From Mariprofundales bacterium (GTDB taxonomy: Bacteria > Pseudomonadota > Zetaproteobacteria > Mariprofundales > J009): 51,914 nt of DNA. Below, piece by piece: positions 1-38,091 of this stretch (position 1 is its first letter; each line of letters opens with the position of its first letter). Below the pieces are notes generated by a model. The model saw nothing but the letters and a program-made list of their open reading frames with translations, did not search any database and was not told the origin of the DNA. The position numbers and the translations under genes were made by a program. The DNA is taken from positions 1 through 51,914 of the forward strand of contig JAUZRF010000023.1 of NCBI GenBank assembly GCA_030950645.1. The letters run 5' to 3'.

Positions 1-51
1 GCATTTTTCAACGCCGCTATCGGGAAAATCAGAAGTGAGCTGAGTAGTTAC
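1..51 (+). repeat. MITE-1 copy, cut by the window edge
   Basis: This is the right part of the 153-bp repeat found throughout the window. It contains the block reading tttttcaacgccgctatcgg and ends with ctgagtagttac at position 51. The left half lies outside the window, so its target duplication cannot be tested; the right flank is cattttag. It lies upstream of tpiA and could affect that promoter. Confidence 0.85.
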
Positions 52-2120: not shown

Positions 2121-2135
2121 ACAAACTGACAGAGG

Positions 2136-2605
2136 ATGAAAAAACGCGGCCCATGCAAACGAACAAAAGCTCAGAATCTATTGCGACGACTGGAGGATGA
2201 TGAGGATTCTGTTCTCGCGTTCCTGCATGATTTCAATGTGCCGTTTACCAACAACCTCACTGAACAGGACATTCGCATGCTCAAGGTGCGGTTGAAAGTT
2301 TCCGGCTGCTTTCGAACCTTGGAGGGGGCTGAAAAGTTCACTCATATTCGCGGCTATCTCTCCACAGCTAGAAAAAATGTAACTACTCAGCACCCTACCC
2401 AAAAATGATTGTAACTGCTCAGATTGCTTCCGGTTTTCCTGATAGCAAGGCGAAAAATCGGAGTTTACTACTGTCAATGTGCATTTTTCAACGCCGCTAT
2501 CAGGAAAACCGGGAGTGAGCTGAGTAGTTACGAAAAAATAACATCAACCCGCTTGATACGATCATCCGTGCTTATCAGGATGAGCCCTTTATCCCAACTG
2601 CATAA
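2136..2605 (+). pseudogene. IS66 transposase C-terminal fragment, interrupted by MITE-1
   Basis: The frame reads KKRGPCKRTKAQNLLRRL, then VPFTNNLTEQDIRMLKVRLK, SGCFRTLEGAEKFTHIRGYLS and TARKN, the typical C-terminal end of the IS66 transposase. It includes the conserved TNN..E.D.RM region that carries the last catalytic glutamate. At 2379 the MITE interrupts it. Removing the element and one 8-bp duplication restores an open frame that reads NNINPLDTIIRAYQDEPFIP and stops at 2605. The N-terminal three quarters of the gene are missing, so it is inactive. Confidence 0.9.
2379..2531 (+). repeat. MITE-1, full 153-bp copy with perfect target duplication
   Basis: The element begins gtaactactcagcacccta and ends gagctgagtagttac. 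Inside are a second end-like motif gtaactgctcag and a pair of 17-bp arms, ccggttttcctgatagc and its reverse complement. It is flanked on both sides by gaaaaaat (2371-2378 and 2532-2539), an 8-bp duplication of the size made by IS66-family transposases. It encodes no protein. Confidence 0.95.
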
Positions 2606-2674
2606 ACTCATAGGATCAGGGGTGCTGAGTAGTTACGAGTCCCAAACAATAGGCTGCCAATCCAAGCTGATGGC

Positions 2675-5053: not shown

Positions 5054-5159
5054 ATCATGGTGCCAGTCGCACCTACATGAAAATCGGAGCCAGGTCTTGT
5101 TTCGCGGATTATATTCTGATTTTTAAGTACGTTGTAATTTACAAAAAAGGTAAAAACAC

Positions 5160-5301
5160 AGCTCACTCCCGGTTTTCCTGCTAGCGGCGTTGAAAAATTC
5201 TCATTTACAGTAGTAAACTCCGCTTTTTCGCCTTGCTATCAGAAAAACCGGAAGCGATCTGAGCAGTTGCGGGATGTTTTTAATGGGTGCTGAGTAGTTA
5301 C
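5160..5301 (-). repeat. MITE-1 copy, truncated at one end
   Basis: This copy is in reverse orientation relative to the one at 2379. It starts within the end motif (cagctcactcccggttttcct), keeps the paired arms, the tttacagtagtaaa centre and the subterminal gagcagttgc, and finishes ggtgctgagtagttac at 5301. The terminal gtaactact of the left end is missing. It lies directly between the hybrid kinase and the truncated kinase remnant. Confidence 0.85.
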
Positions 5302-9160: not shown

Positions 9161-9771
9161 GCAACCCCGATTTCCGCTGGCTAGGCAGACAACCGTACCA
9201 ACCTTTTGCGACAGCAATGCGCCAGCATGCGGAAAAGTTACAAGCAGGCGATGAAAAAGAGGTTATTTGGTGCTGCGAACATGATCCCATCTACACTACC
9301 GGTAGACGCGCGATTGATAATCGCATCACACCAACCCTTCCCGCAGCACTGATCGTCAGCGACCGTGGCGGTGAAACCACCTTCCACGGGCCGGGGCAAT
9401 TGATGCTCTATCCGATCATCAACCTCAAGCGGCGTCACTTGGCGCCACGGGCCTATGTTGCGTTATTGGAAGAGGGCTGCATCCGCCTGCTGGCAGACTA
9501 CGGAATCATCACAGCGCGCCGTAAAGGCGCCCCCGGAGTATGGACCACTTGCGGCAAAATCGCAGCCATCGGGCTGCGCATTAGTCGGGGGGTTGTTTGG
9601 CATGGGATGGCGCTCAATGTCACCACGAAACTCGCGTGGTTTGACCCCATTCACCCCTGCGGGCTCAATTTTGCGATGGACAGCATCGCCCACCACGCCA
9701 CTCCGCAGCCACTGGCCGTACTAGCGAACCAATGGGCAAAAAACCTCAATCAACTATTGGAAATATTGTAA
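9157..9771 (+). CDS. lipB: Octanoyltransferase LipB
   Basis: LipB transfers the octanoyl group from acyl carrier protein to lipoyl domains, the first step of lipoate assembly. The 204-residue protein has HDPIYTTGRRA, the conserved DRGGETTFHGPGQLMLYPI segment, KGAPGVWTTCGKIAAIGLRI with the catalytic lysine, and HPCGLN with the catalytic cysteine. It starts at GTG 9157 overlapping the gshA stop. The stop codon TAA belongs to the first bases (gTAActactcag) of a MITE-1 copy, so the natural C-terminus may have been altered slightly; the catalytic part is complete. Confidence 0.95.
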   Translation: MSNPDFRWLGRQPYQPFATAMRQHAEKLQAGDEKEVIWCCEHDPIYTTGRRAIDNRITPTLPAALIVSDRGGETTFHGPGQLMLYPIINLKRRHLAPRAYVALLEEGCIRLLADYGIITARRKGAPGVWTTCGKIAAIGLRISRGVVWHGMALNVTTKLAWFDPIHPCGLNFAMDSIAHHATPQPLAVLANQWAKNLNQLLEIL

Positions 9772-9846
9772 CTACTCAGATCGATTCTGGTTCTTCTGAT
9801 GGCAAGGCGTTTCAACGCCGCTATCGAGAAAACCGGAAATCAGCTT
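9768..9846 (+). repeat. MITE-1 copy with internal deletion, between convergent genes
   Basis: It begins gtaactactcagatcgattc and retains both arms (ctggttcttctgatggcaaggcg and cgccgctatcgagaaaaccgg), but lacks about 35 central bases and the right terminus. The left end supplies the lipB stop, and the right side overlaps the last codons of the convergent UPF0114 gene. The hairpin arms could act as a terminator for both genes. Confidence 0.8.
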
Positions 9847-11406: not shown

Positions 11407-11456
11407 GTAACTACTCAGCACCCATTGAAAACATCCCGTAACTGCTCAGTAGTTAC
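11407..11456 (+). repeat. Minimal 50-bp MITE-1 derivative with perfect 8-bp target duplication
   Basis: The sequence begins gtaactactcagcacccatt, includes the internal motif gtaactgctcag, and ends directly in tagttac. It lacks the central palindrome of the 153-bp form. Both flanks read gaatattc (11399-11406 and 11457-11464). It is the smallest copy with intact ends in the window and lies between ftsZ and lpxC. Confidence 0.9.
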
Positions 11457-11496: not shown

Positions 11497-12681
11497 TCAA
11501 TCCGCCTGACGCCGCAAAAAAGCGGGAATATCGTAATCGCAATTCAGCTCGGCACCATCACCAGCCTGCGGCTGCCGAGCCAGATGCGTTAATTGATCAC
11601 CCAGCCGCGAACTACCACTAGGCGCATCCGTTCCCGTGGCCAACATGCCGGGTAATGGCAACTGCACTGGAGGCAAAGAGGCGGTATTGTCCACAACTGT
11701 TTGCATATGCACCACTTGACCGCTCATCAACCCTGTCGCGACCACAGTAACCCGCAATTCGTCGCCCATACTGTTGTCATACACCATGCCACAGATCACA
11801 TTGGCATCATCATCGGCCATGGTCTGCACAATCGATACCGCCTCATCGTACTCCGCCAGCGTCATCTCCTCACTGCCCGTTACATTGATCAAAATCCCTC
11901 GGGCACCATGAATATCAACATCCTCCAACAGCGGCGAGGAGATCGCCAACTCCGCAGCAGTGATCGCACGATTTTCACCAAAAGCAGATCCGGCCCCCAT
12001 CATTGCCAACCCCTGACTACCGCTCATCACCGACTTCACATCTGCAAAATCGACATTGACATACCCCGTCTCGGTAATCAGTTCGGAGATGCCGCGAACC
12101 GCCTGTAGCAAGACCTCATCCGCCTGACGGAAAGCCTCAAGCATGGAGGTGTTTTTACCTACCGCACCAATCAATTTCTGATTCGGGATAGTGATCAGGG
12201 TATCAACATGCTTGCTAAGCTCCGCAATCCCCGACTCCGCCTGTTTCATCCGACGCTTGCCCTCAAACTTGAACGGTTTAGTCACCACCGCCACGGTAAG
12301 CACCCCCAACTCCTTCGCGATCTCCGCAATGACAGGTGCGGCACCGGTACCGGTACCGCCCCCCATCCCTGCGGTAACAAACACCATATCTGCTCCCTCC
12401 AGATATTCGCGAATATGGTCGCGTTCCATCTCTGCTGCATCACGCCCAATCTGAGGCTTGGCTCCCGCGCCCATGCCACGGGTAAGCTCTGACCCCAACT
12501 GCAGCTTAAGTTCCGCCTGATTGCGTTCAATTGCCTGCGCATCGGTATTGGCAACAATGAACTCAACCCCAGTTAGGTTATGGGTAATCATGTTGTTCAT
12601 GGCGTTGCCACCACCACCGCCAACACCGATCACTTTTATCTTAGCCGACAGGCTGCTGCTATCCTCAAAAAACATGGACAT
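11497..12681 (-). CDS. ftsZ: Cell division GTPase FtsZ
   Basis: FtsZ polymerises at mid-cell to form the division ring. The 394-residue protein has the N-terminal nucleotide-binding KVIGVGGGGGNAMNN, the tubulin signature GMGGGTGTGAAPV (about 105-117), and the C-terminal peptide DYDIPAFLRRQAD that binds FtsA. The track ORF starts at 12795 inside a MITE; the real start is ATG 12681, after a strong ggaggag. A 105-bp MITE-1 lies about 60 bases upstream, between ftsA and ftsZ, and could change the ratio of the two proteins. Confidence 0.97.
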   Translation of the reverse strand: MSMFFEDSSSLSAKIKVIGVGGGGGNAMNNMITHNLTGVEFIVANTDAQAIERNQAELKLQLGSELTRGMGAGAKPQIGRDAAEMERDHIREYLEGADMVFVTAGMGGGTGTGAAPVIAEIAKELGVLTVAVVTKPFKFEGKRRMKQAESGIAELSKHVDTLITIPNQKLIGAVGKNTSMLEAFRQADEVLLQAVRGISELITETGYVNVDFADVKSVMSGSQGLAMMGAGSAFGENRAITAAELAISSPLLEDVDIHGARGILINVTGSEEMTLAEYDEAVSIVQTMADDDANVICGMVYDNSMGDELRVTVVATGLMSGQVVHMQTVVDNTASLPPVQLPLPGMLATGTDAPSGSSRLGDQLTHLARQPQAGDGAELNCDYDIPAFLRRQAD

Positions 12682-12738
12682 AATTGAATTCTCCTCCGAA
12701 TTGATGTGAACTATTGATGATCGTACTGATGTTGTAAA

Positions 12739-12843
12739 GTAACGACTCAGCTCGCGTCCGATTTTTCGCCTTGCTATCAGGAAAACAGGAAGCAATCTGA
12801 GCAGTTACAGCCATTTTTAGGTAGGGTGCTGAGTAGTAGTTAT
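12739..12843 (-). repeat. MITE-1 derivative (105 bp) between ftsA and ftsZ, perfect target duplication
   Basis: It begins gtaacgactcagctcgcg, contains one arm cgccttgctatcaggaaaac, the subterminal gagcagttacagcc and an end ggtgctgagtagtagttat. Both flanks read gttgtaaa (12731-12738 and 12844-12851), a perfect 8-bp duplication. The opposite arm has been deleted. In the minus-strand transcript it lies between the ftsA stop and the ftsZ ribosome site. Confidence 0.88.
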
Positions 12844-12875
12844 GTTGTAAACAGGTTGCGTAATCGTTCTGGATA

Positions 12876-14111
12876 TCATGATGTATCCCCAAACCAAGCA
12901 CGCATGCGTTGCCATAGAGAAGGCCCGGATACGCTATGATGTTTTTTGGTCGTAGACCTCGTGTTTGTTTGCCGATAACGGCAGCCATAAAGCACCAAAC
13001 CCACCCCAGTGGAGTAGACTGGCGTCGCCACCACATCAACCAACCCCCCCACACCACTTGGTCGCCCTAGCCGAACCGGCGCATCGAAAATCTCTTCAGC
13101 CAACTCCACTGCGCCTTTAAGCAGCGAGCTACCACCGGTCAGCACCACCCCCGCAGAGACTTGATTGTGAAAGCCAGACTGCTCCAAATGGGCTTTTACC
13201 ATCTCAAACAGCTCCTCCATCCTAGGCTCAAGAATCTGTATCATCACCTGGCGTGGCATCGCCCGTGGCTCACGGCCACCTACGCTGGGGATCTCAATCA
13301 TTTCGTCAGGAGCCACCATTGATGGCATACAGGCGCCATGTTTGCGCTTAAGCTGATCCGCCTCGCGCGGTGAGGTGCGCAACCCCACCACTAGGTCGTT
13401 GGTCAAATGGTCGCCACCAATGGGAATCACCGAGGTGTGGCGAATAGAACCATTAATAAATACCGCGATATCGGTGGTGCCACCACCAATATCAACCAAT
13501 ATCACGCCAATCTCTTTCTCTTCCGGTTGCAGCACCGCCTCGCTGGAAGCGAGCTGTTCAAGCACCACATCCGCCACCTCCAGATCACAACGATGGCAAC
13601 ATTTGATAATATTCTGTGCCGAGGAGACGGCCCCCGTCACCACATGCACCTTCGCCTCCAGCCGGACGCCACTCATCCCAACGGGTGACTTAATCCCATC
13701 CTGGCCATCAATGATGTAATCCTGCGGCAGGATATGCAGTACCTTCTGATCGGCGGAGATATTCATTGCCTTGGCGGCCTCAATCACCCGCGTCACATCC
13801 TCTTGCGACACCTCACCGTCTTTGGTCGCCACCACACCATGGCTATTGTAACCATGGATATGGCTCCCCGCGATACCAGTGTAGACGCGCTTAACCTCAA
13901 CCCCTGACATCAATTCAGCCTCTTGCACCGCCAGCCCAATCGACTCCACCGTACTATCGATATTGACCACCACGCCTTTGCGCAGGCCACGCGATGGGTG
14001 GGTGCCAATACCGATCACATCCACCTTGCCATCTGGTGAGACTTCCGCGACCACACATGCGATTTTGTGTGTACCTATATCGAGACCAACAACCGTCTGC
14101 TGATGTTTCAT
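12876..14111 (-). CDS. ftsA: Cell division protein FtsA
   Basis: FtsA is the actin-like membrane tether for FtsZ. The 411-residue protein contains VVGLDIGTHKIACVVAE (phosphate 1 loop), the SHS2-type 1C subdomain, DIGGGTTDIAVF (phosphate 2), VVLTGGSSLLKGAVELAEEI (adenosine region) and a C-terminal amphipathic helix LWQRMRAWF that inserts into the membrane. I chose ATG 14111 (MKHQQTVVGL) because GGAGGTGAT precedes it; the longer track ORF begins inside ftsQ. It starts 2 bases after the ftsQ stop. Confidence 0.96.
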   Translation of the reverse strand: MKHQQTVVGLDIGTHKIACVVAEVSPDGKVDVIGIGTHPSRGLRKGVVVNIDSTVESIGLAVQEAELMSGVEVKRVYTGIAGSHIHGYNSHGVVATKDGEVSQEDVTRVIEAAKAMNISADQKVLHILPQDYIIDGQDGIKSPVGMSGVRLEAKVHVVTGAVSSAQNIIKCCHRCDLEVADVVLEQLASSEAVLQPEEKEIGVILVDIGGGTTDIAVFINGSIRHTSVIPIGGDHLTNDLVVGLRTSPREADQLKRKHGACMPSMVAPDEMIEIPSVGGREPRAMPRQVMIQILEPRMEELFEMVKAHLEQSGFHNQVSAGVVLTGGSSLLKGAVELAEEIFDAPVRLGRPSGVGGLVDVVATPVYSTGVGLVLYGCRYRQTNTRSTTKKHHSVSGPSLWQRMRAWFGDTS

Positions 14112-29624: not shown

Positions 29625-29807
29625 GTAACTACTCAGCTCACTTTCGGTTTTCCTGATAGCGGCGTTGAAAAACGCTCATTTACAGTAGTAAACTCTGCTT
29701 TTTCGCCTTGCTATCAGAAAAACCGGAAGCAATCTGAGCAGTTACAGCCATTTTTGGGTAGGTGCTGAGCAGTTACAGCCATTTTCGGATGGGTGCTGAG
29801 TAGTTAC
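29625..29807 (-). repeat. MITE-1 copy, long form (183 bp) with duplicated subterminal unit
   Basis: It starts gtaactactcagctcactt, has both arms and the tttacagtagtaaa centre, then carries the subterminal unit (gcagttacagccatttt...gggtgctga) twice before ending gagtagttac. The left flank is taatattg plus one T; the right flank is taatattg, so the duplication is nearly perfect. It lies about 220 bases upstream of mraZ. Confidence 0.9.
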
Positions 29808-29815
29808 TAATATTG

Positions 29816-29968
29816 GTAACTACTCAGCTCACTCCCGGTTTTCCCTATAGCGGTGTTGAAAAATGCGCATTTACAGTAGTAAACTCCGCTTTTTCGCCTT
29901 GCTATCAGGAAAACCGGAAGCAATCTGAGCAGTTACAACCTTTTTTTGGTAGGGCGCTGAGTAGTTAC
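29816..29968 (-). repeat. MITE-1, second tandem copy (153 bp)
   Basis: This standard-length copy begins gtaactactcagctcactc immediately after the 8-bp taatattg that separates it from the previous copy, and ends gcgctgagtagttac. Its right flank, gattttat, does not match. The two elements together fill most of the gap between mraZ and the hda-like gene. The rest of that gap, 29969-30083, shows no gene I trust. Confidence 0.9.
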
Positions 29969-33922: not shown

Positions 33923-34075
33923 ATAACTACTCAGCACCCTACCCAAAAACGGCTGTAACTGCTCAGATCGCTTCTGACTTTTCTGATAGCAAGGCGAAAA
34001 AGCGGAGTTTACTACTGTAAATGCGCATTTTTCAACGCCGCTATCGGAAAAACCGGGAGTGATCTGAGTAGTTAC
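33923..34075 (+). repeat. MITE-1, full 153-bp copy with perfect target duplication
   Basis: The copy begins ataactactcagcaccctac (first base changed from g) and ends gatctgagtagttac, with both arms and the gtttactactgtaaa centre. Both flanks read tccccttc (33915-33922 and 34076-34083). It lies between the divergent DUF484 and aroE genes and probably carries or displaces their promoters. Confidence 0.95.
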
Positions 34076-38008: not shown

Positions 38009-38091
38009 GTAACTACTCAGCACCCTACTCAAAAATGACTGTAAATGAGCATTTTTCAACGCCGCTATCGGGAAAACCGGAAGCAATTTGA
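38009..38091 (+). repeat. MITE-1 copy, partial, between pilC and priA
   Basis: The left end gtaactactcagcaccctac is intact. The inner part has a deletion joining gactgtaaatgagc to the atttttcaacgccgctatc arm, and the right terminal gagtagttac is missing. The element starts 8 bases after the pilC stop and lies between convergent genes, where the remaining arm offers little hairpin potential. Confidence 0.8.

What the first reader, a model, noticed from the sequence alone, without database searches (positions are those of the whole stretch)
12731..12851. MITE insertion between ftsA and ftsZ
A 105-bp derivative with a perfect gttgtaaa duplication lies in the short ftsA-ftsZ gap, about 60 bases before the ftsZ start. 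The FtsA:FtsZ ratio is critical in well-studied bacteria. A hairpin-prone or promoter-bearing insert here could uncouple ftsZ from upstream transcription or attenuate read-through. One arm of the palindrome has been lost, which may have been selected.
Basis: partly seen in the sequence, partly recalled or inferred. Interest (0 to 1): 0.65.

Follow-up and report, generated by a model that had tools for sequence, protein, structure and literature searches.

The report
Deleted IS66-type MITE between ftsA and ftsZ
A small parasitic DNA element, one of several hundred scattered copies of an IS66-type miniature transposon in this zetaproteobacterium, once landed in the gap between two cell-division genes and later lost the half that forms a strong hairpin; nothing in the sequence indicates that it changes how the genes are read, so it looks ordinary.

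Summary
At 12739-12843 (105 bp) there is a MITE copy with a perfect 8-bp duplication, gttgtaaa, in the ftsA-ftsZ gap of a zetaproteobacterium (Mariprofundales). Without insert and one duplicate the gap is 81 bp; the two same-family relatives have 83 and 97 bp and no insert. Full copies are 153 bp with GTAACTACTCAGC ends and 8-bp duplications. The ends match the IS66-type tnpC remnant in this window, IS66 elements of other Zetaproteobacteria, and published ISDge4 (ISBst12 group of IS66). The family has about 410 copies here, far more than in any other genome of the order searched. This copy lost about 50 bp, including one arm of a strong hairpin, and has diverged more than most. The proposed regulatory effect has no positive support: no terminator, one chance-level promoter-like site in host DNA, no excess folding of the gap, and an unchanged ftsZ SD and start. 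Intact copies sit in at least 14 other short same-strand gaps, so hairpin loss need not have been selected. A second deleted copy downstream of ftsZ leaves a weak case for local purging. Verdict: a degenerate, probably neutral member of a known kind; the family's copy number is more notable.

The parts
12876..14111 (-). ftsA (start inferred at the ATG of MKHQQTVVGLDIG; open frame runs to 14156)
   Evidence: Pfam FtsA and SHS2_FTSA; translation intact to WQRMRAWFGDTS*
12844..12851 (.). target-site duplication, copy next to ftsA (gttgtaaa)
12739..12843 (+). 105-bp deleted MITE copy (orientation of the 153-bp consensus)
   Evidence: BLAST and profile matches to dispersed copies
12739..12751 (+). 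left terminal inverted repeat, degenerate: GTAACgACTCAGC
   Evidence: alignment to the consensus of 45 full copies
12753..12758 (.). junction of the ~50-bp internal deletion that removed the left palindrome arm
   Evidence: alignment; exact breakpoint uncertain by a few bases
12762..12808 (+). retained right palindrome arm, ending in the internal TIR-like GAGCAGTTAC
   Evidence: alignment; folds
12828..12843 (-). right terminal inverted repeat, degenerate (3-base duplication and last base changed): GCTGAGTAGtagTTAt
12731..12738 (.). target-site duplication, copy next to ftsZ (gttgtaaa)
11497..12681 (-). ftsZ; the mechanical ORF runs on to a TTG at 12795 inside the MITE, but the conserved SD/ATG is at 12681
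   Evidence: Pfam Tubulin and FtsZ_C; start and SD conserved in G001; extended frame shown
2379..2531 (-). full 153-bp reference copy of the family, inserted inside the IS66 tnpC remnant, TSD gaaaaaat
2133..2637 (+). IS66-type tnpC 3' remnant and its right end GGGTGCTGAGTAGTTAC, identical over 17 bp to the MITE end
   Evidence: PF03050 match 40.1 bits; 17-bp identity
11407..11456 (-). second, 50-bp heavily deleted copy just downstream of ftsZ, flanked by aaatattc/gaatattc (7 of 8)
   Evidence: profile match E 6.8e-8; sequence

Best explanation
It is a degenerate, non-autonomous copy of a MITE family mobilised by an IS66-family transposase of the ISBst12 (single-ORF) type. Shown: the family's ends equal the ends of local IS66-type elements, and insertion duplicated 8 bp of an ordinary ~81-bp ftsA-ftsZ gap. 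Inferred: after insertion a deletion of about 50 bp, perhaps by slippage between short repeats, removed one palindrome arm, and point changes and a 3-base duplication in the ends made the copy immobile. Inferred: it is now a passive spacer that is read through as part of the ftsA-ftsZ transcript, with little or no effect on ftsZ.
For: Perfect 8-bp duplication. Gap of 194 bp = 81 + 105 + 8, against 83 and 97 bp in same-family relatives, and no MITE in any of the 39 relative loci. 410 copies of the core motif in the assembly, control 0. 16 of 38 scored full-length matches have perfect 8-bp duplications. MITE end identical over 17 bp to the right end of the IS66-type remnant it sits in, and GCTGA(A/G)TAGTTAC ends on other zetaproteobacterial IS66 elements. 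ISDge4, ISBst12 group, has TIRs GTGACTACTCAGCA/GTAACTGCTCAGCA and an 8-bp DR (PMC12898284). Passivity: no terminators and promoter matches at chance level, gap fold z 0.1, SD accessibility unchanged, intact copies common in short same-strand gaps, 7.8% divergence from consensus against 1-4% for most copies.
Against: No RNA or protein data. Simple sigma-70 and terminator scans would miss other promoter types, Rho-dependent termination and RNase sites. No genome of the same species with an empty site was held. The assembly has only a tnpC remnant, so the mobilising transposase has not been seen in this genome. Lengthening an intercistronic gap from 81 to 194 bp could itself alter translational coupling or mRNA stability.
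Confidence: 0.85

Rival explanations
1. The insert is functional: it brings a promoter, terminator or processing site that sets the FtsA:FtsZ ratio, as Correia elements do for some neisserial genes.
For: Position in the ftsA-ftsZ gap. Precedent: Correia elements create promoters and RNase III sites, and one acts on a dcw-cluster gene, dcaC (PMC2649163). A 9-of-12 promoter-like match begins at the duplication (12738-12710).
Against: That match is at chance level (0.8 expected) and uses host sequence present before insertion. No terminator or IHF consensus in insert or gap. The strong hairpin that RNase III might cut is gone.
Confidence: 0.1
2. A full-length hairpin at this site was harmful, and selection favoured the deletion that removed one arm.
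For: The deletion is private to this copy among those read; the second copy beside ftsZ (11407-11456) has also lost the palindrome, whereas 35 of 46 copies in other same-strand gaps keep it.
Against: Only two copies. Intact hairpins sit in many short same-strand gaps. This copy is older than most, so decay alone would serve. Two intact copies lie upstream of mraZ, the head of the same cluster, though not inside the operon.
Confidence: 0.15
3. Assembly artefact: a MITE wrongly joined between ftsA and ftsZ contigs.
For: Metagenome-like draft with 134 contigs; many contig ends fall in MITE copies.
Against: The gene order is the conserved one; only one ftsA is present; the copy is a private variant (deletion and altered ends) flanked by a perfect duplication, which a misjoin of repeat copies would not produce.
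Confidence: 0.03

Closest known systems
ISBst12 group of the IS66 family (ISDge4 of Deinococcus geothermalis) and MITEs derived from such elements
   Same: End sequence GTAACTACTCAGC(A) and an 8-bp target duplication; tnpC C-terminal domain (PF03050) next to the same end in this genome and in relatives.
   Different: No transposase in the MITE; 153 bp (or 121 bp) with a near-perfect internal palindrome. The copy in question is a 105-bp deletion derivative with damaged ends.
Correia repeat enclosed elements (CREE) of Neisseria
   Same: Hundreds of copies in a ~2-Mb genome, palindromic MITEs with a long (153-157 bp) and an internally deleted (about 105 bp) form, found in a dcw cluster (PMC2649163).
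   Different: Different ends and family. In Neisseria the ~105-bp form is a standing class, whereas here the 105-bp deletion was seen once. No IHF consensus, and the one promoter-like match in the consensus (9 of 12) is of the weakness expected by chance. The similarity in size is coincidental.

Membership tests
MITE (miniature inverted-repeat transposable element) | short, non-coding, terminal inverted repeats | tested here: met
   153-bp consensus with 13-bp inverted ends from 45 copies; in this copy both ends are present but degenerate
MITE (miniature inverted-repeat transposable element) | target-site duplication of constant length | tested here: met
   perfect 8 bp here and at 16 of 38 scored full-length matches
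MITE (miniature inverted-repeat transposable element) | many dispersed copies | tested here: met
   410 core-motif matches, control 0
IS66 family, ISBst12 group (as source of the ends) | GTAAC... ends shared with a single-ORF IS66 element | tested here: met
   same ends on tnpC-bearing elements in this window and in G016, G039, G065, G041, G055; ISDge4 ends
IS66 family, ISBst12 group (as source of the ends) | 8-bp duplication | tested here: met
   ISDge4 DR of 8 bp
IS66 family, ISBst12 group (as source of the ends) | an intact tnpC in the same genome that mobilises the MITE | tested here: not met
   only one remnant found in the assembly; assembly 91% complete, so absence is not certain. The claim is 'derived from', not 'is an autonomous IS66'
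IS66 family, ISBst12 group (as source of the ends) | transposase acts on these ends | not testable with these tools
   needs a transposition assay
Correia element (CREE) | TA target duplication and Correia-repeat ends (TA from own knowledge) | tested here: not met
   8-bp duplications and GTAACTACTCAGC ends
Correia element (CREE) | IHF site in long forms | tested here: not met
   no IHF consensus in the 153-bp consensus or in the insert
Correia element (CREE) | promoters generated at the element ends | tested here: inconclusive
   no match above chance in the insert; one 9-of-12 match inside the consensus; no RNA data

The most novel reading that the evidence does not exclude
ftsZ in this lineage is bracketed by two MITE copies that have both lost the hairpin, because strong hairpins in the ftsA-ftsZ-lpxC transcript are selected against, while hundreds of intact copies are tolerated elsewhere. 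The family would then map, by where palindromes survive, which transcripts are sensitive to an inserted hairpin.
Probability: 0.12. Interest if true: 0.5.

Novelty: new member of a known kind. Interest (0 to 1): 0.25.

Why it matters
The single insertion matters little: it shows that the ftsA-ftsZ gap tolerates a doubling in length. The family is more useful. About 410 copies in under 2 Mb is more than the ~250 Correia elements reported per meningococcal genome (PMC2649163), and no other Mariprofundales genome searched comes close. This gives a natural experiment on what a strong hairpin does inside many operons, and explains part of why this assembly is broken into 134 contigs.

Tried and rejected
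Promoter and terminator scans of the gap: nothing above chance. IHF and extended -10 motifs: none in the gap. Rfam: no RNA family at the insert. Folding of gap with and without insert: no effect on the ftsZ SD. Orientation bias of copies in same-strand gaps: 26 opposite, 20 same, no signal. Avoidance of operons: 46 of 59 copies lie between co-directional genes, as do 117 of 148 gene pairs in the same sampled loci (these loci were chosen because they hold copies, so the background is not independent). An N-terminally extended FtsZ starting at TTG 12795 inside the MITE: rejected because the SD and ATG at 12681 are conserved. Literature: nothing on MITEs in Zetaproteobacteria or on an insertion between ftsA and ftsZ. 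Some ftsZ start calls in distant relatives (gaps of 12, 18 and 31 bp) are automatic mis-calls and were not used.

Full report
What is there. The window is contig 51 of a 1.99-Mb, 134-contig draft. ftsA ends at 12876 and ftsZ starts at 12681, both on the - strand, and both proteins are intact. Between them lies a 105-bp element, 12739-12843, flanked by perfect gttgtaaa duplications.

It is an insertion. The gap is 194 bp. Taking out the element and one duplicate leaves 81 bp; the same-family relatives G001 and G002 have 83 and 97 bp. None of 39 fetched relative loci has a match to the element in or near ftsA-ftsZ. No genome of the same species was held, so the exact empty site has not been seen.

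The family. The insert matches many dispersed copies. A full copy is 153 bp, for example at 2379-2531 in this window, with ends GTAACTACTCAGC and an 8-bp duplication gaaaaaat. A shorter 121-bp form ends at an internal end-like GAGCAGTTAC and also has perfect 8-bp duplications at two sites. Across 38 scored full-length matches, 16 have perfect and 3 nearly perfect 8-bp duplications; for one pair chance gives about 2e-5. The core motif occurs 410 times in the assembly, none in the reversed control. The 14-base end motif occurs 661 times here and at most 57 times in any of the other 77 genomes of the order, so the large expansion is particular to this lineage, although related copies occur in 18 of 61 relatives, the window's own genome included. 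Profile matches cover 2.3% of the window.

Parentage. The copy at 2379-2531 sits inside an IS66-type tnpC remnant (PF03050), whose own right end is identical over 17 bp to the MITE end. IS66-type elements in G016, G039, G065, G041 and G055 end in GCTGA(A/G)TAGTTAC at or just after the tnpC stop. ISDge4, assigned by its authors to the single-ORF ISBst12 group of IS66, has ends GTGACTACTCAGCA and GTAACTGCTCAGCA and made an 8-bp repeat on transposition (PMC12898284). The family is therefore best read as ISBst12-type IS66 MITEs. No intact tnpC was found in this assembly, and none in 11 of 14 MITE-bearing relatives. It may be lost or unassembled.

The deletion. Against the consensus of 45 full copies, the ftsA-ftsZ copy lacks about 50 bp, including the whole left palindrome arm, and its ends carry changes that probably make it immobile (immobility is inferred). 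Its divergence of 7.8% over the shared part is higher than that of most full copies, which lie at 1-4%, so it is likely an old copy. A full copy folds at -66.5 kcal/mol (z -8.2); this one at -26.7 (z -2.2).

Effect on ftsZ. The scan finds no terminator and one promoter-like site where 0.8 are expected. That site starts in the duplication and runs into host DNA, which would have been the same before insertion. The gap as a whole folds no more strongly than shuffles, and the ftsZ SD is as open with the insert as without (0.56 and 0.52). Intact palindromes stand alone in at least 14 other same-strand gaps of 260 bp or less, next to genes such as purH-like, glycosyltransferase and ThiF genes. Of 59 copies in classifiable gaps, 46 lie between co-directional genes, which is the share of such pairs in the same loci (117 of 148). 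Insertion into intercistronic gaps with a hairpin is thus routine for this family. In other bacteria the main ftsZ promoters lie inside or upstream of ftsA (PMC3762067), which would leave the gap itself free to vary; whether this holds here is unknown.

What remains open. A second copy, 50 bp long at 11407-11456, lies just downstream of ftsZ and has also lost the palindrome. Two deleted copies around ftsZ, where 76% of copies in same-strand gaps are intact, is suggestive but too few to count as evidence of selection.

Comparison. The closest functional analogy is the Correia element of Neisseria, with about 250 copies in meningococcus, long (153-157 bp) and short (about 105 bp) forms and known promoter, IHF and RNase III effects, including one in the dcw cluster (PMC2649163). 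It is not the same family: the ends and duplication length differ, and no IHF consensus is present.

Verdict. The element is a decayed member of a known kind and most likely passive. The regulatory interpretation is untested and has no positive sequence support.

Noticed in passing
whole genome G000; window 1-51, 2379-2531, 5150-5301, 9761-9845, 11407-11456, 12739-12843, 29625-29968, 33924-34075, 38009-38091: Very heavy load of one MITE family: about 410 core-motif matches in 1.99 Mb, 2.3% of the window, against at most 57 end-motif matches in any other genome of the order. Many contigs end in a copy.
   Followed up: partly
window 11407-11456: A 50-bp deletion derivative of the same MITE with a 7-of-8 duplication lies between ftsZ and lpxC, so ftsZ has a deleted copy on each side.
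   Followed up: partly
window 29625-29968: Two full MITE copies and a fragment in tandem lie upstream of mraZ, the first gene of the dcw cluster, where its promoter would be expected.
   Followed up: no
window 2133-2637: An IS66-type tnpC remnant is itself interrupted by a MITE with the same ends, with TSD gaaaaaat.
   Followed up: yes
L015 191-311; L022 173-294; L031 378-498: A 121-bp form of the MITE uses an internal end-like sequence as its right end; two of these have perfect 8-bp duplications. Head-to-tail pairs of copies also occur.
   Followed up: partly
L086 (CP070698.1), ftsA-ftsZ gap: An unrelated bacterium has short tandem repeats in inverted arrangement (TCTCAAA.../GAGATCT...) in its ftsA-ftsZ gap.
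   Followed up: no
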